DNA from: Henricia sp. BOLD:AAB3569 | Taxonomy: Eukaryota; Echinodermata; Asteroidea; Spinulosida; Echinasteridae | Direction of reading: 5' to 3' | Assembly: GCA_037783545.1 (NCBI GenBank) | Contig: JBBELK010001000.1 | Coordinates: 558,001-622,000, forward strand | Length of the DNA stretch: 64,000 nucleotides | Shown here: piece after piece, positions 225 to 44,000 of the stretch | Position numbering within the stretch: position 1 is the stretch's first letter | Layout of the letters: each line of letters starts with the position of its first letter | Position numbers and translations under genes: made by a program | The notes under the pieces: generated by a model | Told to the model about the DNA's origin: nothing | The model's database searches: none | Seen by the model: only the letters and a program-made list of their open reading frames with translations

Positions 225-420
225 GTTGTACTGTAGTCAAAGTGCTATATATGCCAATTAGGGTTTGTTTTGCCCTTTCTTGACGTAACTTGGTTATAGC
301 ATTGCTTTCCCGAGATTCAGAGAAAACTTCATAGCGTGCTCTGGTGGGACTCAAACCCACAACCTTCTGCATACAAGGCAGACGGCTTAACCACTCAACC
401 ACTGAGCTGGCCGGTGTTGA
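225..420 (-). mobile_element. tRNA-derived SINE
   Basis: On the minus strand there is a tRNA-like head with an A-box-like TCAGTGGTTGAGTGG and a B-box GGGTTTGAGTCCC (about 331-416). A body with CTATGAAGTTTTCTCTGAATC follows, shared with copies at 2590-2742, 20280-20400 and 34640-35165. Confidence 0.75.
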
Positions 421-5574: not shown

Positions 5575-7203
5575 ACCCATAAATTCCAGAAGTTGCCACT
5601 TTTGACTCGGCATCCGCCATTGTCAAGGAAAGTGTCTGTGTCTGAGGTCACTTTGCGAAATGATCAGGATGGTTTGCGTAACATTTGTAGTGATCCCGCC
5701 TTTCCTCAGAAGCTTTCGGCTCAGCACACACATTCCACCACTGTCTCCAGCGACGTATTGACATACACGCAGGGAACCTCCGACGAAGCCGGTGTGGCTC
5801 CGACACTTTCGGCAAAGTGCCACCAGAGTTTCGGTTTCGGCGTCACCGAGGATATCTTGTCTTTGTTCGCCTTGTTGTTCGAGCGGAATCTGTTGTACCG
5901 CCGGCGATGTTGGGCGTGATGGCTGAGCTCCAGTTGCTTGCTCTTGTGGCGGGCGTGGTGCTGCTGGCGGAGGCCGAGGATTCATGTCCATTGAGGGCAG
6001 TGGTGGTGTGGCCAGGCCCCCGCCACCAGGCCGTCTGGGAGATACTAGGGTCCGTTTTGTACCCGTGTTGCGTGCGGGACCTGACGAGCGACTTCAAGTC
6101 ACCCAAGACGTTTTTTTCTTCTCGGTTGATCTCTCTTGCGGGCGCACGGGATGTTGTGCCGTTCGCTCGCAGGGTCTCTCTCGCCAAGTCGAATAGACGG
6201 CGGGCGCTGATCAGGTATTGTTGGGATGTCATTGATCTAACTGCGACTGTGACAGGGTAGAATAATGTGTCAAGGTTTTGGGGTTCCTCGCGGAGGTAGA
6301 CGTCGACGGCCTCAATCAATGTGTTGGTGATGATCCTGCATTCCACGTGAAACCCTCCAATCAAGTTGTCGTTCTGTTCCATTGATTGCAGGATGTTTGT
6401 CAGGTTGTCCAGTCTGGTGTAGGCTTGGCGAGAGGTGTACGGCGGGTCGAGTTGGTAGCAGTGGCATGCTGTCAGGAAATGATACTGCAAATTGTACACT
6501 TTGATTTTCTTCAGTGCTACGTCGGACGTTATCGTAAATGTTCGGCAATGTTAAATTTCGGCATGGGTCACCCGTCAAGTGGCGTGTAGAGGGTGTAGTT
6601 GTCGATCTTTAAGCATTTTTCTACCTTGAAGCAGAAGACCATTGGTGTCTTGGCATTGTAGGATATGTCCCACATGTTAAGGGGGAAATCTTCGTCTGCT
6701 ACAGCATTGCATGTCGTCAGGTGTTGAGATATATCCGGAAATGCAACGATCGGCTCCTTCATGCCAAAGTTTGTGATACTATATATTTCACACCGGCCAT
6801 GCGTATCGCGTCTAGAAATGTTTGTGTTGACACTCCCTTGGCATGCCCTTTGATGAGGTAGCTACTGGCTTTCTCTGCCGGTAGAGCGACCTGGTTCAGC
6901 TCGCACAGTGCCTGGCATGTGGCCTCCTTTCGTCCCGGTGCGTGGGATGTTTTTATCACGGCTGGGTGGTAGGTCAGAGTGATGGGCTTGAAATCTCCAT
7001 AAAACTCTCTTTTGTAGCGCCTTGTTTCAGACGTGGCCAACGTCACCGTGTTGCCGAGTAGTTCCTGCAATCTCTCAATAAGCTGTCCCGTCACTTCTAG
7101 GTTTACTCCGTAGTAGTCTAGGTCTAGGTGCTCGAAGGTGTCTTCTGGATGAATTAACTCCCTCCAAATTGGTTCGGGAATGAGCTACATCTTAACTTAG
7201 GAT

Positions 7204-7848: not shown

Positions 7849-7917
7849 ATTGTAATGCTTACCACTTTGACTGAATTTTGCAAAGCAACCATGCTTATCG
7901 CTACAATTTGTACTTAC

Positions 7918-8003
7918 CGATGCTAGTGCCTTGCCCAATGTGTCTCCAGTTTGGGAATTCCCTCCACTGCTACCGCTCGTTACATTTGTCGTCCCTTGTA
8001 CAC
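7918..8003 (-). CDS. TCF4/TCF12-like: E protein exon: start of activation domain 2 (SQTGDTLGKALAS)
   Basis: An 86-base exon (phase 1 to 0) with acceptor CATTGTGTTGTAG and donor GTAAGT. It encodes SVQGTTNVTSGSSGG then NSQTGDTLGKALAS. GSSQTGDALGKALAS is one of the most conserved strings of vertebrate E proteins and opens AD2, the loop-helix activation domain that binds co-activators. The helix continues in the next exon (vertebrate IYSPDHTNNSF), which I could not find in the 7.9 kb remaining. The 2.4-kb fossil element starts only 70 bases past this donor, so the next exon is displaced beyond the left edge. Confidence 0.95.
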
Positions 8004-11000
8004 CTACAACACAATGCAACAGCATCGTAATAAAAATATTGGATTCTTGTAGAGTGCACAATGTCTACGCTACATGTAGGCATACTCCTGGCACTGTTGC
8101 CATTATTACCGCTGCCATCAAGGAATCACCAGAACCATTTTGCTTCAACTTGGTGGCGGCCTGGCCAAGGCGCACAACCCTATCAGCAGTTAGATTGTGG
8201 CATTTCCCCGTAACAGCTCCCCATATATCGCTTGGGTTGACGAGGCAATTGAGATTAAGTGTCTTGCCCATGGAAACAAACACATTGGCACAAGTGGGTC
8301 TCGAACTCATAACCTCTTAATCATGAGCACAGCTCAACAGGTCAAACATCCTCTTATTTAGGGAGTGTGTATGTGGTCTAGTGAGTATGAAGCTAATATT
8401 ATGTGGACTCACAATCGGGAGGTTGTGGGTTCAAACACTAAAGCTATGGCTAAGCAGCACACCTAGATGAAGTGAGATGATTATGATGTCTCCCCGAGGG
8501 CAGTGATAATAATGGCAACAGCGCTTTGATACTTTGGTGATAAAGCACTTTGATACTTTGGTGATAAAGCACTTTACAAGAACCAGCTACATGTATTAAA
8601 ATTATTATAATAAACCCACAGGTGCAGTGTCATATGATTAATTGCACACCAGATGTCACCTGCTCGACACCAAATGGAAATTGACATAGCCAAATGCAAA
8701 AGAGAATCCATTGACAATCTACTCAGGTGAGGACGGGCTCAAACAATGACTATAGGCTGCTTTACAGCAACGTCATGCCTTCCACCATTTTGGGTGTCAT
8801 TTGACAATCAAGACCCACGTGGCCTTAGAGCTAACCAACAATAAGAGTGCAAAAAGCGTATAATGGTTGCACACATTTCTGTTGCATTACCTTGCTTTAG
8901 GTTGTTGTGCCATGGCTGTCGCGCCGAGTAAGATAAAAATGTCTTTTTCAGGCTACATCGTGAATAACTAAAAAAATTATTTGAACGTATCGCAATGCGC
9001 ATGTGCAGCATTTTCGAATGAAAACATGCGGATGGGCATTTTTTTAAACGTACATCCATGTGCGTTGAATATTGCGCGAGTTTACGCACGTGACGCCCAC
9101 ACATTCCCAGATGTCACACGCGGCTGAAAGCAGTCTACACCATTTTTGACGATTACAGTGCTGGTAACCAGTGTTCTTCAATGCTAAACATTTTGTCTGG
9201 GAGGGTTCAGCGGCGCCCCCTTGGTCGCTGTGTGAGGGTGCTGTACAGAACAGATGCATGCAACTGTCACGGCCATTATTGGCTGCACATCGGGTTGTCG
9301 ATGCGATAGATATGCGAGGTAAGTGAACGATAATGACATCAGCGGCCATCGAATCACGTTTTAAAGTGTGTTAGACAGAAAAAAATGTATTATTTTTGTC
9401 CGGGCGGCCGGGTTTTTTGTCCGGGCGGCCAAGTTTTTTGTCCGGGCGGCCCAGTTTTTTGTCCGGGCTGTAACGGTACCTCTGATGATTTTATCCGGGC
9501 GGCGCACCTGGACAAAACAGTAGTGGAGAACCCTGGGTAACAAACACAGCACTGCTACTTGTACTTACTTAACGTGGCATCGGTTCCGTTAGTGGGCGAT
9601 GAGGTTGAATACGGCGAGTGAGGGTGAGTAGAGGAGGAGGTCGTCCCGGGTCTGAAGGTGGACATTGGAGGAAGACTCAGGGGGTCACGACTGGGAGACA
9701 GGTTATGGCTGCCGTGGTTATGGCTGCCGTGGTTATGGCTGCCATGGTTATGGCTGCCGTGGACGTGGCTGGTGCCTTGACTCTGGCTATAGACCTGTGG
9801 GGACAAAACAAATACATAATACACTGGTTGATAGTCAGGTTCTTATCAAAACTGGAAACAAAACCAACAATCGGGACAAATGATAGTTTGTTGACGCAAT
9901 TTGTTTCGTTACACACTTGCATGGAAAGTAATGAACAAACTATTGCACAACTTTTCTACTACAGTTAGCACACGTTTTTAGCTAGTGCTTAAGCAGCGCC
10001 ATGAAATTAGCCCCAGCTAGCTGCCAATTTCATGGAGCTGTTTATAGGCGTTTTTCTGCTAATTGAGGCTTCCGCTATTTCATAGACTCGTGTGGTGGGT
10101 AGGTAGTTTGTGACTGTGAATACAATGGATGTTGCTTTATCATAGACTTGTGTGGTGGGTAGGTAGTCTGTGACTGTGAATACGATAGCGGTTGCCTTAC
10201 CATAGACTCGTGTGGTGGGTTGGTAGTTTGTGACTGTGAATACGATGGTGGTTGCCTTACCATAGACTCGTGTGGTGGGTAGGTAGTTTGTGACTGTGAA
10301 TACGATGGTGGTTGCCTTACCATAGACTCGTGTGGTGGGTAGGTAGTTTGTGACTGTGAATACGATGGTGGTTGCCTTACCATAGACTCGTGTGGTGGGT
10401 AGGTAGTTTGTGACTGTGAATACGATAGTGGTTGCCTTACCATAGACTCGTATGGTGGGTAGGTAGTTTGTGACTGTGAATACAATGGTGGTTGCCTTAC
10501 CATAGACTCGTGTGGTGGCTAGGTAGTTTGTGACTGTGAATACGATGGTGGTTGCCTTACCATAGACTCGTGTGGTGGCTAGGTAGTTTGTGACTGTGAA
10601 TACGATGGTGGTTGCCTTACCATAGACTCGTGTGGTGGCTAGGTAGTTTGTGACTGTGAATACGATGGTGGTTGCCTTACCATAGACTCGTGTGGTGGGT
10701 TGGTAGTTTGTGACTGTGAATACGGTGGTGGTTGCCTTACCATAGACTCGTGTGGTGGGTAGGTAGTTTGTGACTGTGAATACGATAGCGGTTGCCTTAC
10801 CATAGACTCGTATGGTGGGTATGTAGTTTGTGACTGAATACGATGGTGGTTGCCTTACCATAGACTCGTGTGGTGGGTTGGTAGTTTGTGACTGAATACG
10901 ATGGTGGTTGCCTTACCATAGACTCGTGTGGTGGGTTGGTAGTTTGTGACTGTGAATACGATGGTGGTTGCCTTACCATAGACTCGTGTGGTGGGTAGGT

Positions 11001-14000
11001 AGTTTGTGACTGAATACGATGGTGGTTGCCTTACCATAGACTCGTGTGGTGGGTAGGTAGTTTGTGACTGTGAATACGATGGTGGTTGCCTTACCATAGA
11101 CTCGTGTGGTGGGTAGGTAGTTTGTGACTGTGAATACGATGGTGGTTGCCTTACCATAGACTCGTGTGGTGGGTTGGTAGTTTGTGACTGTGAATACGAT
11201 AGTGGTTGCCTTACCATAGACTCGTGTGGTAGGTAGGTAGTTTGTGACTGTGAATACGATGGTGGTTGCCTTACCATAGACTCGTGTGGTGGCTAGGTAG
11301 TTTGTGACTGAATACGATGGTGGTTGCCTTACCATAGACTCGTGTGGTGGGTAGGTAGTTTGTGACTGTGAATACGATGGTGGTTGCCTTACCATAGACT
11401 CGTGTGGTGGGTTGGTAGTTTGTGACTGTGAATACGATAGTGGTTGCCTTACCATAGACTCGTGTGGTACATGTAGGTAGGTAGTTTGTGACTGTGAATA
11501 CGATGATGGTTGCCTTACCATAGACTCGTGTGGTGGGTAGGTAGTTTGTGACTGTGAATACGATAGTGGTTGCCTTACCATAGACTCGTGTGGTGGGTAG
11601 GTAGTTTGTGACTGTGAATACGATGGTGGTTGCCTTACCATAGACTCGTGTGGTGGGTTGGTAGTTTGTGACTGTGAATACGATGGTGGTTGCCTTACCA
11701 TAGACTCGTGTGGTGGCTAGGTAGTTTGTGACTGTGAATACGATGGTGGTTGCCTTACCATAGACTCGTGTGGTGGGTAGGTAGTTTGTGACTGTGAATA
11801 CGATAGTGGTTGCCTTACCATAGACTCGTGTGGTGGGTAGGTAGTTTGTGACTGTGAATACGAAGCAGCAGAATTGCTGAGGATGGACGATGTGTGGTAG
11901 CTTGCGCTGGATGGGGCCAGCCCATTACTAGTCCAGGGGTCTGTACTATGGGGACTGTGGGTGCCTGGAGGAGCATCTGAGAAAGTCAGAGACAAAACGA
12001 AATTTAACAAGATTAAACAGAAATCTATGAGACTTAGGCGCGAGGTCAAAATAGAAACGGTCTGTATACCGGGAAACAGTACATAAACGATACACCGTTG
12101 CACGGTTTTGAGTGAGCAAGCAAACGGTTCAGCTGGTCTGGCCAAACGGTAGATAATTGGCAGTGTTCAACCCACCCGTGTTCGCTGAACAAATGGTTTT
12201 CTGCCCACAGACAAACGGTTCCAAGAGGAATTAACTTGAACTGTTTACCGGTAAACAGACCGTTTGTATTTTGACCTCGCACCTTACATGGCGCCATTAG
12301 CAGCCGAAGGCCAGAGACACCAACGAATCCCCTTACTCTTCATGAAAGAGTGCCCTGGCCCGGGATCTTTTAAGTGTGTTACACAATATTTATATATTTA
12401 TTCACCACATCCAACAGCGGAAGGACCGCCAATTACAGGAATTGGATCAATTAACATAAACTGGGCTCAACAAAAAACTTATAATTTTTCACATGGTCAT
12501 ATCTTAAAATCCTGTCCATCAAAATGAACTAAAATGACACAATGGATTACTTCAATACTCTACTCTAAACATGTGATACAGCAAGCGGTTCCATTCCAGT
12601 GCATTTTTCAGTTCTGTCAGTTGGGCAACTGCTTGGTTACTGACATGTGTTTAGAGTAGAGTATTGAAGTAATCCGGTGTGTCATTTTGGTTCATTTTGA
12701 TGGTATGACATTTTAAGATATGACATTGTGAAAAATTATAAGTTTCTTTTTGAGCCCAGGTTAGATATTTGAATTTAAACTATATCAACTTTTAAGTTGA
12801 ATTAGAAACGGCCAGAGACACCGGGGAATCCCTCCCCTTGCTCTTCATGAACGAATGCTCTGGGATCTTTAAAGTGCGTTACCGAAACCTAACACACTGG
12901 ACCAACGGCTTTACATCCCTTCCGAAGGATGGAACAAGTTTGATTAAGTGCCTTGCTCAAGAGCACAAGTGCCACAACCCGTCACGGCCCGGAATCGAAC
13001 CCACATTCTAGTACTGGCACAGGAACTTCAGTTCGACGCACTACAAAGCTTGGCCATAACACCCCATACCGTACACTGGACCAATGGCTTGACATCCCTT
13101 CCAAGAATGAAGCACCTGTGTTTTAATGCCTTGGTCAAGGGCACAGGTACCACAGCCGGGTATCAAACCCGCAACACCAAGTTTTCACCCCAAAGTTGTG
13201 GGTCAACAACCTACATTTATCTTTATTCAAAATGTTTTTGAATATTGAATAGCAGCACATCACCCTTTCAATTTGCCTTCACTATTAAATTAAGCCTAAT
13301 TACCTTGTTTTAGTTTGCACATTACATGTAGTAATGCCTATCAACTAGTGTTTTACGGTAACAAATTTCCGTGACAACAAGCTGCATGGTGCTAGCGGCT
13401 CGCAGTGACCGAATAGAGAATGAGGATTTTTTATTTGAGAAACCTTAGTATCGACTTGAACATAGCTCAAAGCCATGTACCAAAGAAGATGCATGGCCGA
13501 TTCCGAGTTTCTAATTCACATGGGAGCAAGTCTAGGTGGGTCTTTCCACAGTAAATGGGGCATTTTGGCAACAAAGACCATATTTTTAAGAAAATACCTT
13601 TGTCTGGAAATACCTTTGTCTAAAGAGATAACTTAGCTAAAATTGCCATTTTATGTGAAGTTCGTAACCACTTTTCAGTAGGTAATATTTCTTGTCCTTT
13701 GCATTAAAATAATCTAAGTTTTTTTTTTGTTGGGTAGAATTCCCCTTACACCGTGTTTACACTCGAACCGGCAAAGGTGGATACAGACCCAGCATTTTTA
13801 TTGCAACCACAAAATTGAACATTTGCCGCGTTTACACTACCTCGATTCGGCTTCAAACTCTCCTTCATAAACCGCAAAAGTCACCACTAAATGTAACTGC
13901 AGCGCATGCGTGAGCTGTTAGGTGTTGCGGCACTTGTGCCAGATTTGTCAATTAAATCTACTACACGGCGGGCACCGCCCCAAGGACACTCAAATCTGTA

Positions 14001-17000
14001 TTCGGGTAGCGTTTACACTACAAGCTACCTTGACAATTGCAGGGTTCAACCCCGCAATTGCGGGGTTCAACCCTACCCCAAAGGTGACTTGAAAAAGGCG
14101 AATCAGACCCCGGTCTGATCCGCCTTTTTCAATTCACCTTTCGATTCGGCAAAGGTGAATCGAGTGTAAACGGGCCTTTAAACACTAGTGCCTAGGGCAT
14201 ACAAAAGGCCATCTACATGTAGTCCTGGCTAGCCTGCTGTGAGCTTACCCATGAAGTACTCATTGGGGTAAATGCCCGGAGGCTTCGAAGAAGGGTAACT
14301 TGAAGGGTCCGTTGAGTGATGGTAATCCTCTTGACCATTTGGAGAATAAACCTACACAGTCAGAAAATAAAATAAGGCTCAAATGGTTACTGTAGGTTAT
14401 TTTATATTCCTAGTCAGCGACTCAAAGCGGTCTCTTCAGCTCTTCAGTAAGGTACTGGTCATTTTTTTGGGGACTAAATCTAAGAGTCTGTCCGATATCT
14501 ACGAAAAATCAATTAGGTGATGTTGAATGTTGTATTACTATACCTCATAAATATTCATCAGGCAGCCGCGGTATTTCATTGGTCCATTCCAGCAACTCGG
14601 CCGTGTGATAGTTTTTATTACTACACAGGTACTATCGCACACTTAGATCAGAGCCTAGATTTGTCACAGTACAGCGTGATATTTTCAATGAAATGTACCA
14701 ACGATGTATAGTATGCGCTAACTACATGCGCCCATGGAGATTAGTGTTGAGTACAGTTGTACCAGTCTATTACAAAATAAATCAAAATGACATCCGGTGG
14801 TGCTCGATCGTTTTGCGATATTGGAGGTTTGGATCCATGAAATACCGCGGCTGCCTCAAAGAATATTTATGAGGTATAGTAAAACAAATACAACATGGTT
14901 TCAGGGAAAATAGTATACAAATAATAAATGTTTATGAGTGCAATGGGAGGAATATTTTCATGAGGTTGAAGATGGAACATTCTATTCAACGAGGCGGAGC
15001 CGAGTTGAATGGAACATATTCCATCTTTCATCGAATGTGTGAATTTGTTTTATATAACGCCAAAGTAATAATAATAATAATAGTTATAATAATTTATATT
15101 GCGCAAATTCCATAAAAGAAATGATGTTCAAATGCGCATAACAATACAGTGTACTTACACTACAACTAAAGAATTGGTTAAAATAAACGGATACTAATTA
15201 TTAATTAACACATAAAAGTACGATAACATAAATCGATCGATTACCCTGTAAATCAATCATTTATACATATGCGCTGAGGAACAAGTGTGTTTTTAATTTA
15301 CGCTTAAAATCTGCAAGAGTCGGAGCTGAGCGGACATTTTGGGGCAGTCGGTTCCATAAAGTGGGTGCAGCTACAAAAAATGCTCTGTCACCGAGTGTTT
15401 TTGACATCTTTCCACTGGGTAGACTAAGCAGATTAGAAGTTTGAGATCGTAAGGAATAACTGGAATTCGCCCTTTTTGTTAATAGATCACAAAGTTATTT
15501 GGGAGCCTGGTTATGAAATGCTTTAAATGTCAGTAACAATACTTTAAATTGAATACGAGACGATATGGGAACCCAGTGTACATGTAGTTTCTGTAATATG
15601 GGGGTAATTTGGGGAAAACGCTGTATATCCACTTCGGTCACATTTGTTGAAAGGGATTTCTTTTTATGTCAAAATTCCTGTAACTGACGGGGATATTAAA
15701 TGTACATTTTGAGAATTAAAATGAAATTTTAGTGATAATTTACATGTATGATTTTTTTGCAAAAAAAAAACAAAACACAAATGTTCTTTTTCTTCGCTCT
15801 ATGCCATCTTGTGTCATCTGTATCAAGTATTAGGACTATGTGCATATCTAGAAAAAAAGTAACCCAAAATGTAACAGGGGACACAATGTTCCAGTTTTAT
15901 GGAAAAACCCACACAGTTGTCTTGTGCGTATATTAAACATTAATGCCAGGGACAAAATCAGGGAGTTAATTTGAAACCACTTTCTTCAATTGCAAATTGA
16001 GAGACCTAACGACCTAGCCCGAAGAGAAAACAAAACTACTGTATCTAGTGAATGAATGAAGACAACTAAAAGAGGGGTCCCATCTGGTGATGCAAGGCCA
16101 TTACATATTGGAGGGGAATTGGAAGGCAATTGTCTCTGATTCAGTTAGGGACTTCAACGAGATGAAGTGATTGTTGTTATTTGTCGCAGCATTGAGGGTC
16201 AATCATCGCCAAACAGAGACCGCGGCATCCTCGGGATGTAACACAATGCCGTCATATTACGTTAACGAACAACTTGCGCGAACTGATTAAAAGGAAATTA
16301 TTCCGACAAACATTGGCACCTCGGAGGTGTATAAAAATCAAGTGTTGGTTGTTTCTAACACCATGTCTTTAAATGCCGTCTTTTGGATTTTGTAAAAAGG
16401 AGTTAAAAATTGCCCTTTTTTGTGCTTACCGAAAGACTGCCTGGGGGACCTTTCCTCCTTTTGGGTGGACCTGAAAATCATCAAAATTCAGATAAAAATT
16501 AATGTGTGATATAATGATTATTAAAAGTGGAAAATCTTATTAATAAAGGGGCTCTGTTAACCCTCTAGTGCACAGGGCGGTCGCTTAGCAAAACCTACTC
16601 GGCAGTGGACAACGAAGGAGTGTGGCCCCTTTGGTGTGAGAGACCTGCAGCGCCCCCAAGACCCTCACCTGTGATTGGCCAAGGCATGGTTGAAGAGCCA
16701 ATCAGCCAACTGTTACCTAGGCAATGCATCATCCCAAGCTTTTGGAATGCCCCCCAGCTCACTCCCCCTGGGGACAAAGTGTGTTTTCCGGAGACAAGCA
16801 CCGTAAATATTTTAGTGGGAATCTATAAGGAATTAAACATCCCTGTCAATTACAACTACAGAGGCCTGGGCAAAATCTTCTGGTTAGCCACACAAGTTTT
16901 ACAGGGACAACATTTAGTCCAATAGACCTTTATCACGGTGCGTCCATCTTTGTCTTGTTCCCCACTGCATGCATAGTACGTATGTGTACGTGTCGGGCAT

Positions 17001-20000
17001 GATCAGTGCGTGTGCGTGTCTGCGCGATATAGAGCGTGCAGTCTTCCGTTGTTGTTTTAAGAGAATCACTGTCCGCGCTGCGCGGTTTCTTGATCGCACC
17101 GCGCACATGTCATTGTGATGCACACAATGAACATTTGACACGGGGCCAAACTTTTTTATTTCGGCAAGCCTCGCTTTGGTTACGTTCATTTTAATAGGGG
17201 AAAAGGGAAGATGGCCGCACCGTGATAAAGGTCTATAGCAGCAAATCTACGATGTTAAATGGATATTTAAGGAGCGTGTCCGATGGGTGTTGAGATTTTG
17301 ATAAAATATCATGTGTCATATTTTTCTCATTACCATTCCGAAATTGTGTGCTCTCAATCCGGATATTTTCAAGGATATCGTCAAAAAACCACTGATGTTT
17401 TGTAAACTGATTTATTTGGTTGAAAGCAGTGCAGTGATTACACCAAAACGTTTTGCTTCCACATCCAAATTGGAGATTGCAAAATTTCTTGTTTTCTTCC
17501 CATGGATAGTATTTTGGGGAGGTATTTTTATGATTGTTAAAAGGTTAAAACGAAATTCATAAAAAAAAAATAAAATAAAGTCACGCTCCGTTAAATCACA
17601 CGTAAAAGTACCGCAGGGACACAGCTTTAGCACTGACTTACGATCAACTCAATAACGCTGGCATTTATGAGCTGGCTGCCAGATTGAAAACAAGCACATT
17701 ACCTGCAAACGACGGGTGTTCAGGCACAAGCGGTCTGCGTCTGTGATGAGGACTGTAGTAATAAGGTGAACCAGGCTTAGCATGGGGAGACAGGGAACTA
17801 CCACTGGACATGTCGCTGTTTAGAGCCGGCATACCGCCCTGTTGTATCAAAGAGAAGGAAAGATGTTCTATTCATTATTCATAAGTACCTTAGTGTACAC
17901 ACATTCCAATGGGAGACTTGAGACGACTGGTGGCAACAAATATAATGGTCCCATGTGACCAGTCCTCTATTGTTTGCGTCATTTTGAGCGTGCGCACTTC
18001 AGCTCAGGAGTGACGCAAACAATAGTGGACTGGTCACGTGGGACCATGGTATTGATCACGTTCAAATGACGTCACTTCCTACGAATTGTCACGTGTACCA
18101 GGATTTTGAGCGTACTTTTGTTGTGACGCGCATCGGTTGCGCCATATGTCGAACAACACACGTGCGTGTTTGGAACAGTTTCCAGGGTGTGCGTGCACGA
18201 TGGCGTTTAATACGCAGTAGCATTTTCCTACGGAGATGGCGTCTGTGAGACTGGTCAATTTGCCACCACCAAGCATCTCAAAGTCTCCCATTGGTAGAGA
18301 GCACGTCACGTGGGTGGTCTTTAACGAATGGTAAAGGCCCTGCTGGTTTTAAGCACGCTCGTCTGGCCCTAGCCAGTTTCAACACACATGGAAAATGCCC
18401 TGCTGAGTTGGCCCTGATGCCCCTTCAAGATACACATTTCCAAGGCAAACTTGGCCAGCATACCCTATCTTCCTAAATTTCATGAGGCTTGTATACACTA
18501 ATAACCAGTACACATTTAGAACAAAGTTGGCCAAGTTTGCCCTCCAGTTGGCCTCAGTGCCCTTTGAAATTCAGACAAAATCAAGGCCAAAGTGACAAAA
18601 ACTCCAAAGCGTATCTTTGTTGGACAATCACAGCCAAAAGATATATTTTGAAGAAATGTACATATGTATACATGTGTGAATATTCACATCTTTTGAAATC
18701 ATGCATCTGTTTCAGGTGCACTTTTATTGTCCAATCGTGCCCAATATCTAGCTTAATTTACTATTAAAATGCAAAAACGAACATTATGGCAAGGTCCACA
18801 AATCCACTGCACATTTGCAATACTTACGTATACCCAAGTCTAATTAGGCATACATACAAATTACAATGCTTTGTCTGCCTACAATTATTATGTTTGCCAC
18901 ATCCTGAATCATTTGGAAGAACTGTTGACTCCCGTTTGGTGTAAATGTATGTTTAACCCATGCAATAGTATAATGGAACTGATATTTTATTGATGTAATT
19001 ACAAACCATACTTAAATACAAGGGTGGTTGACAGAAGCAAAATTCATTTGTGCCCTGTGGTGCAACAGGACTCGGAATACCCACCGGATTGCTGGATCGA
19101 GTCCAGTAATTTAAAGATAGATTACGGGCAGGCTTGTAACGAGTCTCCCTCTTCTCGACTCCCAAGTCAAGTCAAGTCAAGCTGCCTTCGAGTCCCAAGT
19201 CAAGTCAAGTCAAACTGCCTTCAAGTTCCAAGTCGAGTCAAGTCAGGCATACTGGTCAAGATAGGTCAAGTCTAATAGTCACGACAGTAAATTTGTTCAA
19301 GTTAATTTCGAAATAAGTCTAAACGCAGAAACTCACATTCATGTTACTCTGGCAAAGGTTTCTTTAGTGCTGAAATACAATTTGGTCCTCAAAATGACAA
19401 AAAATGCGTAAGAGATTTATTTAATTTTTTGGTCAAGTCAAGTCATTTGAGGTTCGAGTCTCAAGTCAAGTCAGGTCAAGTCAAGTCAGGTTCGAGTCTC
19501 AAGTCAAGTCATTTGAGGTTCGAGTCTCAAGTCAAGTCATTTGAGGTTCGAGTCTCAAATTTTTAACTCTTTTAGTGCCAAGGTCATACATGTACGATCT
19601 ATCGTCTGAAAGTGTACAAAATAAAATTACATGTACCGGGTAGCATACACCTTTTAAGTGCCAAACAATGAAATATTCAAATATTAAGAAAGGAATTATT
19701 GCGTCGGTCCAAATGATGATAAGTGGAAGTAATTTTTGCACATCACGACGCAGTATGCACTACAGTATGCACTATATACTAAGTATTTACTACATTGTAC
19801 ATGTATGTAAATTATAGTGGCCCGCTGTAGGACCATCGAACCCGCCATTCGCCATTGGCATGCCCGGTGGTCGAGTGGTTAAAGGCATGTTTCCATTGGA
19901 CTTTCTTTTCCGCTGCCTCGCGGAAAGTTACCGCGGCCTTCAGTAACATTCCTTCGTGTAATCTTCCCATGCGTTCCCATTTGCAAACTTAGTGCCCATG

Positions 20001-26000: not shown

Positions 26001-29000
26001 AAATGAAATTGTTTTTCGTGAGGGCAGGAAATTGCAGTAAATAAGCAAATCCTTGAATTAATCAATTTATTCTTTTTTTAGCAGAATATGCACACGTATG
26101 TAAGTTTTCTTTTAGAAAACTAACAAGTAACGTTTCTTTGGAGTATAAATGTGTGTATAAAAAGTCTGGTTAAATGACCATGTTGTACATCACATTATAG
26201 ATGATTAAATTTGATGTAGAGTGAATGTATTTTATTTTTAAAGGTCCAATGTATCATTTGCAAGATGAGACTTTTTAACAGCAGGTACAATCCCTCTTGC
26301 ATTTGCACTTTTTTCAATAGTCCACATATCCCTGTAGCCGACGTATACCGACATTTTTTCAACTTGCCCATTTTAAGTGGATAAATCACAAGCAAAAGTG
26401 CGGTTTTCGAAAATGACATTTTCGCGATTTCTTCAAAGGTATTAATGATACATGTACATGTATGCACGTGACCCCGCGACGCAATCCTGATTAAGAGAAG
26501 TAAACATGATCGGCAACTCCATATGTTTACACGCATAAAACTCCGAAAACTGTCTCTGTTGGATGGTGTTTTTTTGAAGAATTTGGTTTAGTTGTGTGGT
26601 TGTATGTTTTACCAGACACTATGAAAAAAAAGAGCAGAAACATCTTTTTTATTTCCAATACACAGCCTACTCGCTTTCCTGAACAACGAACATTCTACAT
26701 GTACTATATTTAATGGTGACATAAAAGTGTCACCTTTACACAACGATGCACAATAACATCAAGGTGCAAACGTTTTCGGTTAGGTAACTGGTCCCGCGCA
26801 AAACGTTGCATCAACTTACATGTAATACCTAATGGGTACCAGTGCGATTGTGCCCTTAAGGCCCAGTGGATCATTTGCAATGACCCCAAAAAGTAATCGA
26901 CGAGTTTACAGGGGAAAAGTTCTGAAAGTAAAGATTGAATTAATAGCAACTATCCAATGAAAGGTTTTTGCTCAAAATGATATAATTTTACCAGAAAATA
27001 ATCCGTAAAGATGAAATTATTTAGATCGTTTGCAAACGATTTACTTATTTTTGGTTCGCATCTACGCGGTCCAAAATGCATGGGCGCCGTGTACTCCGTG
27101 TGCGTGTTCCAACGCGATGCATTTTTTAATGGATCGCGCGCACACGCATGTAAGCGCAGTATGTGCGACAGAGTGCATGACGCAAGCCACATAGTACCCG
27201 ATCAACTGAGAACGAATATTTGAAACACCCTGCCAAGACCAGGAAAATGCGTATTGATTTTCATTGTTTTTTTTAAACGTGGTACATTTGACAAAGCTGA
27301 AATTTCTTCGGATGAGTTTGTTGATGTCTTATTTTTGATTTATAATGGTTTTATTCGCAGAATCGCTCAAAAACAGATCATCTACAGGGCCTTTAAACCA
27401 CTAACCATCATACCAGTGCATTCGGTTGTTCCCATGTTTGACGATTTGTTTACGCGATCTCCGGGCACGCGGAGGAGCTGCAGTACGGTAATTATATACA
27501 GCACGCAGCAGAGGGTACGCTCCCTTCTATTGTTCCCCCATTGCGTCTCAAGCATCCAATGAATTTCAAAAGAATTCTTTTCAGTCCCTTTGTCCCATAT
27601 CATGCTAGGTATAATGGTATCAAACACGGTTCACTGTGGTCAAAGGAAGCAAAGAGACTTTAAGTTTTCAGTTATTTCTTTTGACCCACCTACCCATAAC
27701 ATTGATTATTTTGAATAGCCCCTAAAATAACTTGTCTTTTCACATTTTAAATATTTCAGGCAAATCTTTTTTGCAACTTAGTTTTTATTCCATGGATCGG
27801 ATGTTTGTCAACTAGATCAAAGAATGGAATACATGTGGGAAATTCCCAAAATTAGGGGTCCAAAAGTGTGACATGCTTTTTAAGATTTCCAAGTGTTTTT
27901 AGTGATTGAAAGTGGTTTCCCAGTAGAAAATAATGCCACTTAAATTAAATGTTTGTGTTTAGATATGTTAATGCAAACTCATTCTACAGCCAATTTTCAT
28001 TGGCGTAGGTAACCCGGAACACCAAACAAATCATAAGCCTTTATGGTCTTTTGTTTTGAATATTTTTTCAGGAATTAGAGAACAAAATATTGAAGAAAAT
28101 GATGCTGCCCCCTATAAGCACAGGCCACAGTCTATTACTGATAATTTGTGATCATGAGTGGTGATTTTTGTAGCAGAGAGTGTCGTACGTAACTGGGACA
28201 CCAAACATTTTGGACCCCGAATTTTGGGAATTACCCATGTACATGCATGCTCCAAAAACATTTTATGGGGCAACGTATACTGTACACGTATAGCTGCAAA
28301 GTACTTTCATGCTAACTTTGTGCAAAAATATCCAAAACGGCTAAACCTTGAGTGAAATTAGTGTTGTAGTCGAGTACTTTTGAATTAGAGTACTTTCCAT
28401 TTGAATTCTATCAATCTGAAGCTTGTTGTACAGCCTCAGAACGAAAAATATCAAATTTAAAAATATTTTTGTATTAAAAAGTATAAATCATGTAAAGTAT
28501 AAATCTGTAGGGCTTGCTAAGCTCACGTGATAGCCAATCCCAATCAGTGAGGAACAACTGCACTACCGTGATTCGAGACCACCAGTTAGCTTCATAGCTC
28601 AATTGGTAGGGCGTCTGCACGTTAAGCAGAAGGTCCGTGGTTCAAATCCTGGTGGAGCCAAGTTGCTTTTCATTGCATCCAGATTTCCCAGATTCATGGA
28701 CATTTGTCCACATTTGTATCGAATCATGAAAAGTATTCAGAAAAAAAGTATATGTACTTGCCAGTACTTTCATCATTTCAAAAGCCCAAAGTATTCTAAA
28801 ATAAAGTGATTACCCTGAAACCAAGCTTAAAGGCTCAGTGTATCATTTGCAATGACCCCAAAAAGTAATCGACGAGTTTACAGGGGGAAAGTTCTGAAAG
28901 TAAAGATTGAATTAATAGCAACTATCCAATGAAAGGTTTTCGCTCAAAATGATATAATTTTACCAGAAAATAATCCGTAGAGATGAAATTATTTAGATCG

Positions 29001-32000
29001 TTTGCAAACGATTTACTTATTTTTGGTTCGCATCTACGCGGTCCAAAATGCATGGGCGCTGTGTACTCCGCGTGCGTGTTCTAACGCGATGCATTTTTAT
29101 GGATCGCGCGCACACGCAGTATGTGCGCCACAGAGTGCATGATGCAAAGCCACATAGTACCCGATCAACTGAGAACGAATATTTGAAACACCCCGCCAAG
29201 ACCAGGAAAACGCATATGGATTTTCATATGGTACATTTGACAAAGCTGAAATTTCTTCTGATGAGTTTGTTGATGTCTTTCTTTTGATTTATAATGGTTT
29301 TATTTGTAGAATCGCTCAAAAACAGATCATATACAGGGCCTTTAACTGATGTACAGTTCTTAATGTATGGTGATTTTGGGATTCCCTGTGTCATAACTTA
29401 TATTAGGCTACACCTCTGTGAAATAATTTGTTTATTTGGGGGGAGGGGGGAAGGAGATTTTTTGTCCATTTTAAATACACTGCAACTGAATTCTAAACAA
29501 TCTCAGCAAATCACAGTATAGACCAAGGACTCGTAGGCTGGGCAAATTATTGGAATTACCTCGCCCAGACAAAAATCCACCACAGTCCAACTTTGGTATG
29601 TACTAGAACAATACCATGCACCTACTCCCTCTCCCCCTTCCCCCCCCGCCCCCTAAAAAAATAGTCAATAACTCATTTATTTTCTTTCACTTTGCTAGCC
29701 ATTCTTGTTGCGGAAACCCAACCACATCTGGTGATCTCCCACTGCAAGCGGGATGGGACTCCCAGAGTCTTTCTTGCTTGCCTACCAGACCGTGTGAGGG
29801 ATGACAATGCTGCAATCGTGTGCGGATTGCGAGAGACGCGGCGGGAAAACACGACAGGAAGAAAAATCAATAGATTTGAGTGTTGGGGCAACAGCTGTGT
29901 CGGACGAGGGGTTTGGAGTAAACTCCCACATACCGGTACCGCTAGGGGAGGGGGGTGGGGGGAGGATGGGAATCTAGCGCTAAAACTACATGCAATGCTT
30001 TACTCTTCACACCTGTTGAATGCTCGCTCGCTCGCTTGCAGAAATGAAAGGTCAAGTGCAATGCAACTGGATTAGCATTGAAAACTTTGAACCAAAAACA
30101 GCCCCTTTTTGGTTAAAATGCAAATTTCAGTAATTTTATTTCCTGAAAGCTGCTAACCCATAAAAGTGAATAAAAATATTTATATAAAAAATAAATACAT
30201 ATATGGGTCTTTCTATAAATTAGGGGTCCAATGTTGGTGTCCCCAGTTACATTTTACATCTTGTTTTTGTAAATTCAGGACACATTCTTTAAATACTTTC
30301 CATCTCAAAGAGCGAGTACATAAAGTACAACTCATACAGAATGGTTTAAAGGCCATTTTAATGATTTTTGAACGAAAAATAACACATATCAGGTGTAACG
30401 GGGGACACTAAATGTCACACTTTTGGACCCCTAATTTATAGAAAGACCCACATACAAGTACTTGAATTGTTAATTTACGGTCCACCGCTGGGCTGCGGAA
30501 AAATTATCTTGTCATTTTTCGTCGCTATAAAGTCCTGTGCGAATGGGAATCGTAATGTAAAACCATGACCTGAACGATGAGGTGACACACTACTGTATTT
30601 ACAGTTTTTTCAAGGTTTTACAGGGCAAAGGACATACTTCGAGCTGGAAAAAATTACCCTGATGGAATGTTAAGAGTGGCTCACAGTAACTTTTTTGCAA
30701 CAATGAAACTCATGAAACATTCTTAAGCCAACTGCAGCATCATCAACCACTTAGGGTCTGATTCTTTCCCAGCTGGGGATGCATGCCTTAAGGAGTGATT
30801 GAGATTTGATCTTGATCTCATGAACAATTACATTCAGTTCTAGAAGGGAGGTTTAGATGCACGTGAAACGCGAACGTAAGCGCGAAATGCTTTTGAGCAC
30901 TTGATCATTACTTTGAGGAACTCTTAGAACAGTCGAAAACAAAAATAAAAAAATGTGACTTTTGTGGCAAGATACTGTAGCTACAGTATGCTCACATCGA
31001 CATAGCAACTTGGTAAAGCCTAGAGTACATGTACATTGACCTTGCAACTAGAAGCAACTGTTGCTTGCAGTGATCAGATGTACGCGTACATCGACAAAAC
31101 TGACCGCAACTAGGTACAACTAGTTGCCAGAGTAACTGAGCAACTCGGAATTTTTCTGGTTGCCAGTAGTTGCAAGTGCGCGTACATCGTTCTTTTTAAG
31201 CAACTGATCAGTTGCTCCCAGTTCATGCAGTTGCTGCGTGTTGTTTTCTAGTTGCCAGAAACGCCAGTTGCCACTAGTTGCTTCCAGTTGCTAGGTCGAT
31301 GTACGCTAGGCTAGGACACGATTGAAGAGTCCTTCTGTATGAATATGGTGTACAGAAGATAGCTCTTGTGCGTGTGTGGGGAGCGTCAGTGATCAGTCAC
31401 ATAGCTAAGAGTTCTCCAGTTCTGGGATGCGTTTGAGCGTGTACTTGTGTTAACAAGAGTAGTACTCCTGCAGCGCGAACGGCAAGAATAACGACACTCG
31501 GGTCAGTGAGAGTATGCTCTTGCTACTCCCTGACAAATGGGGAGTGTGCTCTTACTCCTGATGAGTGCCATGTGATTTGCACGAAGATGGCAGAACATGG
31601 GTGGAATTTAAGTGAGTTTGCTCAACATGTTAACTAGATAACTGAAACAACAACTCACTAGACAGCATAAAAGATTCCGCAAAAGTTCTTGGGGTTTTCT
31701 GTGATATATGTCGGTATTTTCTTTAGTTACTTTTGAGCAGTACATGTATTTGTCGAGTCGTGGCTAGAGACAGCCATCTTGACGGATGGCCATTAGCACA
31801 TGCATAATGTTCGCGTAATGTGACCCGAGTGCAGTGCGCACGCATTATTCCGAGTAACGATAATTATATGCCCGAGCGCGGCCCAAAGGTCTGCAACTGA
31901 AATGGGCCTGAATGACGGCATTGGATACAAGTTGGATACAACAGGAGTTGGAAGATGTATGGTATTACAATTATGCTAAATATTATAATTTAAGTATTAA

Positions 32001-41000: not shown

Positions 41001-44000
41001 AGGGCATCGAGTAGGGATCCTTAGATTTGCCTGTACAAAAACAAATAGGAAAACAAACATAGATCAAAAGTTAAAGAGCAAGCAAACTGGTACAAGAATC
41101 TGACTAAAAAACATCAAATTTTTCCAACAGTTGGATTTTAAAAATTAAAATGACTATGTTTTAATAGTGATATTCTTTGAAACATCAAGCTCATTCTGGC
41201 AGTAAATTTATCTTATTGCAGTGTGCTCCACTATCTTATTGCAGCGTTCTTCACTACCATTAGCGCCCGGACAAACATTTTCCGCCCGGACAAAAAACCC
41301 GGCCGCCCAAACAAAAATAATCCATTTTTCCCTCTAAAACACTTAGAAAGTACAGCCAAGTCATTCAAAAATTAGGTGTAAAGTCACCAAACATGATTCG
41401 CTAGCCACTGGTGTCATTATCGTTCACTTACCACGCATATCTGTCGCATCGGCGACCCAATACTTGGTCGATAACGGCCATGGCAGTTGCATGCATTCGT
41501 TATAAACAGCGCCTTAACGCGGCAAACACTGATTGGCCGCGTGAGGGCGCTGCTCAGCGCGCCTGGACAACAATTTTTAGCAGTGGAGAACACTGCTATT
41601 GGCCACAAAATACTACAGGAAAGATTTTTCAAAACCTTCCAATAAAAATAGAAGTTGCACAAAGCATCATATTCTGAAATTTATCTTTTTTGATTCATAC
41701 ATGCACATGTAAAAACACTTCTCAGTCCATCCTCATACGGTATTTACAATTTAATGGCAAGTGCTTGGGGGTGCCAAAAGCTTCAACAGCCTATAAAATT
41801 TCAAACTTTTATGTGGTTACTCCATAATAATTGATGCGACTAAAATGCCTCTGTAAATTATTAGGCATCTGACACTTCTAAATTGATGGGTTTAACACAT
41901 GGAGTTCCAGACTAGAAAATCTTGTGTGCATTTTTCACTGGTTTCGCACAACTTACAACAAAAATAAAGCTTGGCCGTTTGTCCTAAGTGTACCATACTT
42001 TCCCAGATACAACTTTCCGAGATAAATTTTCCCTGCCCGCCGCAAACATTTCCCATTGATATAAATACTTGTACTGGACATTTGTGTGCATATTTGTCAT
42101 TGCCATTATTGCGGATCAATTATTAAAATATTTAACAAATTGGAGAATATACAAATTGACCGAGGCTCGAGTTGGATTGTATTGTTTTACACAAATACAC
42201 CCGAGCAGTTAATTTTATGCAGGTGCAGAATATTCGTTTGCAGGTAAATGTACTTTCTCACTTTACATACATACATCAGTGTTTCCCCCAGAAAAATGTT
42301 AAAGCGTAGTGGTAAAATATAATTTGAGATGACATACGTTGTCCGTTTACTTTCGCCATCCAATACTGTGATATGCCATGATACAAACAGTGGATTTTCC
42401 CCTCCGTACATATTGTACATTTATCAGTTTCATTATCTTTTTGTTTTAATTTTAATGTCCGAGAGCTCAACAAGCATAATTCTCTCAGAATATTGTAAGA
42501 AGCTCTGAATATGAAAGGGTAGTGGCTGATTGCTAAAGAGTAGTGGCACCACTACTCTATAACGCTTCAGGAGAAACCCCGCATCTAACGAAAATAAACC
42601 ATTTTTAAAATTTTATCCAAATGTACACTTCCTGTAGATTATTCCCATCAAATTTATTGTTAAGGCTCAGTTTCAATTTTTGAAATTAAAGACTTAAAAA
42701 TTAGGATACAATTGTCCAAAAAAAATGTGAAATAACAGTTATTGCTGGGTAGTCTGTTACAGGGTAATAATTTGATTTTTTTTATAATTTAATACGTATG
42801 AAGTGGGTTCAAGTCCCACCCAAGCATGCCATGAGCTTTCAGCATGTGTCTTTGGGAGGCAGAGGGGCACTTGGCATATTCATGTAAGGGCAACAATTTC
42901 ATTTAAAGTCCTTATAGATGATCTGTTTTTGAGCGATTCTGGGAAGAAAAACATTATAAATCAAAAGAAGGACATCAAAAAGAAGAAGAAATTTAAGCTC
43001 CGTTAAAGGTACCAAGTTTTCCCAAAACATGAAAATCCATGTGTGTTTTGCCAGTCTTGATGGGAAATTTCAAAATGATTGTTCGTGACATGTTCTAAAT
43101 TCGTCTCTTCATTCTCAGTCGGTCGCGTACATGTATGTACGTATGCACTCATGTGGCTCGTGTCGTATTGGTTGTGTGCGCGATCAGTCTAGTGCACATG
43201 CACAGTGTAACCTACATGTACAGTACCTACGGACAACTGACGGAATGTGTGCGAAGCCTGAATCGTGCAGCCTGTACACAGCGCCCACTTCGGACCGCCC
43301 AGATGCGAGCAGACTAAGAAATTTCAATCTTTTGAGGGTGAGCTTTTAAGTAAATCGTTTGCAAACGATCTAATTAAATTTCATCTTCATGGATTATTTT
43401 CTGGGAAAATTATATCATCTCGGATGGAAACATTTCATTGGATAGTTGCTGCCAATTCAATCTTTACTTTGAGGAAGGTTTTGGGTCTATCTATAAATTA
43501 GGGGTCCAATTTTGGTGTCCCCCGTTACATTTTACATCTTGTTTTTGTAAATTCAGGACACATTGTTTAAATACTTTCCATCTCAAAGAGTGTGTACATA
43601 AAGTACGATTCATACAAAATGGTTTACATGTAAAGGCCATTTTAATGATTTGTGTGAAAAATAACACATATCAGGTGTAACGGAGGACACTAAATGTCAC
43701 ACTTTTGGACCCCTAATTTATAGAAAGACCCTTTTCCTAGTCAACTCATTGATTACATTTTGGGTCATTGCAAATGATAGTTGACCTTTAAAAATGGAGT
43801 TTGTCAGGTTTCCTTTATTATGTGAAGAAAAGATGAGAAAAAGCTTGAAATGAAAATGAAACAATATCACAGACAATATCACGTTTTAGCTAATTAGCAT
43901 GACGACAGTACCATAACACTGAAGTGGCCACGTGTACGCACACGGCCAAGGCGCCTTTTATTCTCTTAGCTGATAACCGATATGATTAGATCAGTTTCAA

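What the first reader, a model, noticed from the sequence alone, without database searches (positions are those of the whole stretch)
10081..11863. A 5' splice site amplified about 28-fold in an E-protein gene
The exon ending YSQSQTTYPPHESM and its first 15 intron bases form the unit of a 60-bp array. Twenty-eight copies keep ATG|GTAAGG in the same phase. Splicing to the next exon could start at any of them, or the tandem donors could act as decoys that bind U1. I know of no comparable structure in a TCF3/4/12 gene.
Basis: partly seen in the sequence, partly recalled or inferred. Interest (0 to 1): 0.88.

Follow-up and report, generated by a model that had tools for sequence, protein, structure and literature searches.

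The report
Splice-site minisatellite in an E-protein gene
A short piece spanning the end of one exon and the start of the next intron has been copied about thirty times in a row in an animal transcription-factor gene; this looks like a large example of a known lancelet oddity called a mirage, probably harmless to splicing because only the first one or two copies can give a proper protein.

Summary
On the minus strand, 30 unit ends lie head to tail at 11863-10081. Twenty-eight read ATG|GTAAGG (0.51 expected, 0 of 100 shuffles reach 28). The two intron-distal copies have lost the GT. The host is an E-protein-like gene: five collinear exons, four of which splice in frame and match recalled human TCF12/TCF4 over 191 residues at 89 and 75 bits, against a best of 48.9 in 200 shuffles.

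The interpretation needs correcting. Donors 1 and 2 keep the frame open, but donors 3-28 all take in a TAG carried by unit 3, so splicing cannot productively start at any donor. The donors do not all keep one reading phase. Invariance of the donor 9-mer among 27 internal units is no evidence of selection (P = 0.17). Nor is the structure unprecedented: minisatellites spanning exon/intron boundaries, "mirages", are described in amphioxus Adh3, globin and PGBD5 genes, and for Adh3 and globins cDNA suggests regular splicing (PMC3087553, PMC3902484).

Best reading: a long mirage-type array. Donor 1 is authentic and 29 copies are intronic passengers. The species is not established, and no cDNA or second allele was available.

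The parts
17703..17838 (-). exon A of the E-protein-like gene (136 nt), GGMPALNSDMSSGSSLSPHAKPGSPYYYSPHHRRRPL...
   Evidence: tblastn to recalled human TCF4 (E 0.027) and TCF12 (E 0.11); AG and GT edges read directly. Its frame does not join exon B directly, so an exon between them is probably missing from the model.
14249..14351 (-). exon B (103 nt), VYSPNGQEDYHHSTDPSSYPSSKPPGIYPNEYFM
   Evidence: tblastn weak on its own (E 0.083 and 0.14); splice edges and frame
11819..11976 (-). exon C (158 nt if donor 1 is used), ending YSQSQTTYPPHESM; its last 45 nt are the first copy of the array
   Evidence: CTTTCTCAG acceptor and ATG|GTAAGG donor; in frame with exons B and D; tblastn weak on its own (TCF12 E 0.037); homology of the joined product
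10081..11863 (-). 60-bp minisatellite, 30 unit ends, each unit = 15-18 nt of intron start plus 42-45 nt of exon end; 28 GTAAGG donors
11759..11818 (-). second copy, ending at donor 2; the only extra donor that keeps the frame open (+20 aa, VRQPLSYSQSQTTYPPHESM)
11699..11758 (-). third copy, carrying TAC to TAG; exon C ending at any of donors 3-28 includes this stop
10081..10200 (-). two intron-distal copies (29 and 30) whose following junctions have lost GT (ATAAAG, AAATAG); 92% and 90% mean identity to the internal units
9569..9794 (-). exon D (226 nt), VYSQSQGTSHVHGSHN...SLPPMSTFRPG..., with a 15-bp coding repeat (HGSHN)
   Evidence: tblastn TCF4 E 7e-5; TCF12 E 1.6e-10, an alignment that runs on into the intron; edges and frame
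7918..8003 (-). exon E (86 nt), ...GGNSQTGDTLGKALAS
   Evidence: tblastn 68% identity over 22 aa to TCF12, E 3.7e-4; frame

Best explanation
A 60-bp segment straddling the end of exon C and the first bases of its intron in an E-protein (class I bHLH, TCF3/4/12-like) gene was tandemly duplicated into a minisatellite of about 30 copies, of the kind called a 'mirage' in amphioxus. The spliceosome normally pairs the exon C acceptor at 11976 with the nearest good donor, copy 1 (11819|11818), possibly sometimes copy 2, and joins it to exon D at 9794. The other copies leave with the intron. The extra donors look alike because the array is young or homogenised, not because each is selected. Shown: the array, the donors, the frame and stop consequences, and decay of the distal edge. 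Inferred: donor choice, neutrality, array instability, and the cephalochordate host.
For: Array and donors. Exons B-C-D-E join in frame with donor 1, and donors 3-28 give a stop. Donor 1 makes a 158-nt exon, whereas donor 28 would make a 1776-nt one. TAG occurs in 5 of 29 complete units and frame-shifting -CA in 4 of 29, as expected for non-coding copies. No substitution falls in the donor 9-mer among 27 internal units, but this has P = 0.17 given 10 variable columns of 60. The two intron-distal copies average 92% and 90% identity to the internal units, against 97% among internal units, and have lost GT. Published mirages look alike: boundary-spanning units, many but not all carrying splice signals, cluster-edge copies excluded from homogenisation, and RT-PCR suggesting regular splicing in Adh3 and globins (PGBD5).
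Against: No RNA evidence was available. All 28 donors have equal U1 pairing energy and similar opening energies (donor 1 5.57 against a mean of 6.15 kcal/mol for the rest, third lowest of 28), so sequence alone does not single out donor 1. The globin paper itself notes that repeated splice signals could serve as cryptic sites giving alternative transcripts. The organism is not identified, so the link to amphioxus mirages is by structure only. Neighbouring units are not more alike than random pairs (p = 0.51), so the simplest one-unit slippage model has no support. Three of the five exons match the recalled human proteins only weakly on their own (A, B, C: best E 0.027-0.083), and the aligned TCF12 has a gap over the YSQSQTTYPPHESM-VYSQSQ stretch, so conservation does not directly confirm the exon C end.
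Confidence: 0.8

Rival explanations
1. The tandem donors are functional: they act as decoys or as a U1 platform that slows or regulates removal of this intron, or shield the transcript from early polyadenylation, with dose set by array length.
For: 28 identical donors at about one per 60 nt, against 0.58 sites per kb of equal or better U1 pairing elsewhere on the minus strand (36 of 3773 GT sites outside the array).
Against: Donor invariance is not beyond chance (P = 0.17). The two distal donors are decayed. There is no AATAAA/ATTAAA on the minus strand between 12402 and 7900. Published Adh3 and globin mirages are reported as not interfering with regular splicing.
Confidence: 0.08
2. Alternative donor use with nonsense-mediated decay: donors 1 and 2 make protein, and donors 3-28 make stop-containing transcripts that lower expression.
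For: 26 of 28 donors give a premature stop at the same codon, and donors 1 and 2 stay open.
Against: This follows from a single TAC to TAG in unit 3 and could be accident. No expression data exist here.
Confidence: 0.08
3. The array is coding or a set of small cassette exons: each unit has TATTCACAG (or TATTCAG) followed by 33 nt ending at the donor, in frame (SQTTYPPHESM), so variable numbers could be included, as in polyubiquitin UBC.
For: 28 of 29 complete units keep a 33-nt and one a 39-nt segment between CAG and ATG. UBC is reported to include a variable number of its repeats by splicing, and VCX3A to have an intron polymorphism in its repeats.
Against: 5 of 29 carry TAG. The gap between neighbouring segments would be 27 nt or less, shorter than animal introns usually are (recalled), so every second unit at most could be used. 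The candidate acceptors have poor pyrimidine tracts by eye; they were not scored. The frame preservation rests on two indel types only.
Confidence: 0.03
4. Assembly artefact: copy number invented or collapsed.
For: No reads or second allele available. The longest exact repeat inside the array is 164 bp, longer than many short reads.
Against: 14 distinct unit types among 27 internal units, interspersed, with no exact repeat longer than 164 bp. That there is an array seems safe; its exact length is not.
Confidence: 0.06

Closest known systems
Amphioxus 'mirages' (Adh3; globins BflGb6 and BflGb9; PGBD5; also cited for troponin C)
   Same: [quoted passage not shown] Passages of PMC3087553 and PMC3902484 seen. 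The Adh3 paper is not held.
   Different: An E-protein gene; 28 donors, against 6 and 3 units in the two BflGb6 haplotypes and at most 7 in PGBD5. Copy numbers in Adh3 could not be checked. Species of this window unproven.
Tandem dual-specific splice sites in polyubiquitin UBC and VCX3A
   Same: Splice sites repeated once per unit of a tandem array (PMC10809524, abstract and passages).
   Different: There the repeated AGGT motif can serve as donor or acceptor and, in UBC, delimits coding monomers. Here the junction is ATG|GT, a donor, and the array as a whole cannot be translated.
Boundary tandem repeats in human segmental duplications
   Same: Variable minisatellites at exon-intron boundaries, said to be able to form novel introns (PMC2812944, passages).
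   Different: Those average 30-bp units repeated 4 times and change gene structure. No such change is shown here.
Intron gain by tandem duplication
   Same: Duplicating a segment with splice signals could create new introns (only titles and abstract starts seen in the listing; model discussed in PMC3087553).
   Different: Here an existing intron is lengthened; no new intron is shown.

Membership tests
Mirage (boundary-spanning minisatellite) | tandem repeat unit spans an exon/intron boundary | tested here: met
   unit = exon C end plus GTAAGG...; the boundary itself is inferred from splice signals and frame, not from cDNA
Mirage (boundary-spanning minisatellite) | many but not all units carry splice signals | tested here: met
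   28 of 30 junctions GTAAGG
Mirage (boundary-spanning minisatellite) | edge copies escape homogenisation | tested here: met
   units 29 and 30 are 92% and 90% identical to internal units, against an internal mean of 97%; shown for the intron-distal edge only
Mirage (boundary-spanning minisatellite) | regular splicing undisturbed | not testable with these tools
   needs cDNA; the frame analysis allows only donors 1-2
Mirage (boundary-spanning minisatellite) | length polymorphism, germline or somatic | not testable with these tools
   one sequence only
Mirage (boundary-spanning minisatellite) | cephalochordate genome | not testable with these tools
   no whole genome held for the window; no eukaryote genome collection among the tools
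E protein (class I bHLH: TCF3/TCF4/TCF12) | collinear homology of the region upstream of bHLH | tested here: met
   joined exons B-E: 89.0 bits to TCF12 and 75.1 to TCF4 (recalled sequences), against a best of 48.9 in 200 shuffles; exon order collinear
E protein (class I bHLH: TCF3/TCF4/TCF12) | bHLH domain | tested here: inconclusive
   no credible bHLH match in the window by tblastn (the best overlapping that part had E 3.5 and lay out of order); it should lie beyond the low end of the window
UBC-like dual-specific splice-site array | AGGT at each unit boundary usable as both 3' and 5' splice site | tested here: not met
   junction is ATGGTAAGG in 28 of 28

The most novel reading that the evidence does not exclude
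Array length tunes the output of a developmental master regulator. The donors compete for U1 and the spliceosome, so that longer alleles divert more transcripts to donors 3-28 (stop, decay) or to donor 2 (+20 aa), making an unstable minisatellite a rheostat for E-protein dose and isoform.
Probability: 0.07. Interest if true: 0.8.

Novelty: new member of a known kind. Interest (0 to 1): 0.38.

Why it matters
It would extend mirages to a dosage-sensitive developmental transcription factor (that sensitivity is recalled) and offers a natural test of how a spliceosome picks one donor among 28 identical ones. If the array is neutral, it shows how strongly exon definition and position override donor sequence. 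If not, it is a length-variable splicing dial. The kind itself, and its proposed role in intron evolution, are already in print.

Tried and rejected
Coding minisatellite (60 bp = 20 codons, and the first two copies are open): rejected, since 5 of 29 complete units carry TAG in the exon frame and four units are 58 bp. Selection on each donor: not supported, P = 0.17 (one of the 10 variable columns depends partly on how the 66-bp unit was aligned, and the two edge units were left out of that count). RNA structure hiding all donors but the first: donor 1 is third lowest of 28 and within 1 kcal/mol of the mean of the rest, for both flank sizes tried. Telescripting: no AATAAA/ATTAAA on the minus strand between 12402 and 7900; five lie further upstream in the transcript, 12402-13802, within the 7900-14400 stretch scanned. 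One-unit slippage signature: neighbour distance 70 against a permuted mean of 70.1 in 10,000 permutations. Other copies of the unit in the window: none with 32 or more of 60 matching outside 10000-11900, ungapped. Exact unit pieces: 0 matches in genome contigs and in viral contigs; these hold bacterial, archaeal and viral DNA, so this says little. Taxon: Rfam gave two tRNA hits and Pfam nothing for 10 chosen ORFs of 83 listed (list); neither names a host. A literature route to amphioxus transposon sequences was tried as a listing only and gave nothing usable. An exon between A and B was sought by a few motifs and not found.

Literature: nine searches were answered. Only (both of 2 papers; 9 of 9) were listed in full; the others showed 20 of 210, 25 of 269, 12 of 607, 15 of 24, 10 of 135, 10 of 89 and 12 of 48. 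One search (mirage + minisatellite + amphioxus) returned exactly the globin and PGBD5 papers. No listed title or abstract start names a boundary minisatellite in a TCF3/4/12 gene, but the listings are partial and the library lacks most subscription journals. Four papers were opened (PMC3087553, PMC3902484, PMC2812944, PMC10809524), in passages or abstract only.
Full report
What is there. On the minus strand of the window a 60-bp unit, GTAAGGCAACCACCATCGTATTCACAGTCACAAACTACCTACCCACCACACGAGTCTATG, is repeated head to tail. TRF places it at 10081-11863 with 29.8 copies and 95% matches. Splitting at the unit end gives 30 ends; of 29 complete units, 24 are 60 bp, four are 58 bp and one is 66 bp. 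ATGGTAAGG occurs 28 times in the window, all within the array on the minus strand, with a shuffle mean of 0.51 and maximum of 3 in 100 shuffles. The junctions after the last two copies are ATAAAG and AAATAG.

Host gene. On their own those at 17.8, 14.3 and 11.9 kb are weak (best E 0.027, 0.083 and 0.037); those at 9.7 and 7.9 kb are better (best E 1.6e-10, in an alignment that runs on into the intron, and 3.7e-4). All five sit in segments with AG and GT edges, which I call exons A-E. B, C, D and E join in one open frame when exon C ends at the first donor. The joined 191 residues match TCF12 at 89.0 bits and TCF4 at 75.1 bits, against a best of 48.9 among 200 shuffled queries. A does not join B in frame, so an exon is probably missing from the model. 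No credible bHLH exon was found in the window. In the alignment to TCF12 the stretch around the C/D junction (YSQSQTTYPPHESM-VYSQSQ) falls in a gap, so the exact exon C end rests on splice signals and frame, not on conservation.

Which donors could work. For each of the 28 donors I joined exon B, exon C up to that donor, D and E. Donor 1 (exon C of 158 nt) and donor 2 (218 nt, +20 aa) are open. Donors 3 to 28 all include the TAG of unit 3. Relative to donor 1, 10 of 28 donors lie at offset 0 mod 3, 16 at 1 and 2 at 2, so the donors do not all keep one reading phase. TAG in the exon frame occurs in 5 of 29 complete units. This makes a translated or freely chosen array unlikely and leaves one, at most two, productive donors. 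It does not show which donor is used.

Is the donor conserved for a reason? Among the 27 internal units, 10 of 60 columns vary by substitution and none lies in the donor 9-mer; chance alone gives this with P = 0.17. U1 pairing energy is the same for all 28 (-8.5 kcal/mol) and within the range of the gene's four other modelled donors (-7.0 to -10.7); 36 of 3773 GT sites outside the array on the minus strand score as well or better. Local opening energy of donor 1 is the third lowest of 28 and differs little from the rest. No AATAAA or ATTAAA lies in intron C-D on the transcribed strand. So nothing in the sequence calls for a decoy or U1-platform role, though nothing excludes one.

How it formed. 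The two intron-distal copies average 92% and 90% identity to the internal units, against 97% among internal units, and have lost GT, the pattern expected of array edges outside homogenisation. There are 14 unit types among 27 internal units. Neighbours are no more alike than random pairs (p = 0.51), and the longest exact internal repeat is 164 bp. A random 60-bp segment of this window straddles one of ten modelled exon edges in 0.9% of placements, and a 1783-bp one in 15%. Position on a boundary is therefore not in itself strong evidence of function.

What is known. Tandem repeats spanning exon-intron boundaries were named mirages in amphioxus Adh3 and reported in globin genes BflGb6 (6 and 3 units in two haplotypes) and BflGb9. 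The authors state that Adh3 data and their own globin RT-PCR suggest no interference with regular splicing, that the repeated signals could nevertheless act as cryptic sites, and that the clusters are unstable in length (PMC3087553, passages). PGBD5 of lancelet carries a 60-bp repeat (2 or 7 copies in different assemblies) overlapping exon 3 and a 108-bp repeat (3 or 6), also discussed as mirages; that gene model had cDNA support only for its N-terminal part (PMC3902484, passages). The original Adh3 paper is not held. Outside lancelets, human UBC and VCX3A have splice sites repeated per unit (PMC10809524, abstract and passages), and human boundary repeats can alter introns (PMC2812944, passages). 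By anatomy this array works like a mirage. Membership in the cephalochordate family is untested, because the organism is unknown: no genome is held and no eukaryote genome collection was among the tools. I put a cephalochordate host at about 0.6, by inference from the array alone.

Verdict. A real, long, boundary-spanning minisatellite in an E-protein-like gene; most likely donor 1 is used and the rest is passenger sequence. A new and large member of a known kind, unless cDNA shows otherwise.

Noticed in passing
window 9701-9771 (-): A second tandem repeat, 15-bp units inside coding exon D (HGSHN repeated), in the exon that follows the array.
   Followed up: partly
window 9393-9468: A 21-bp repeat (TTTTTGTCCGGGCGGCCAAGT, 3.6 copies) in the intron just beyond exon D.
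   Followed up: no
window 5623-7184 (-): Five overlapping minus-strand open frames in the region beyond exon E; all five were given to Pfam and had no hit at E 0.05. Could be a decayed mobile element or a host gene.
   Followed up: partly
window 27224-29287 (+) and 57716-58051 (-): Open frames in the two regions share translated stretches (KTRKTHMDFH, FKRGTFDKAEISSDE) on opposite strands, so probably a dispersed repeat in inverted orientation.
   Followed up: no
window 48399-48539 and 49449-49578: Two arrays of closely related 16-bp units (CGAAGTGGYTTTGGGG) about 1 kb apart.
   Followed up: no
window 336-408 (-), 28588-28660 (+), 42743-42827 (+): Rfam calls tRNA at the first two and ARAGORN at the first and third; perhaps tRNA genes or tRNA-derived repeats.
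   Followed up: no
window 9777-9794 and 11846-11860 (-): Exon D begins VYSQSQG and the array unit's coding part begins YSQSQT, with different serine codons; an older duplication or convergence at this junction.
   Followed up: no
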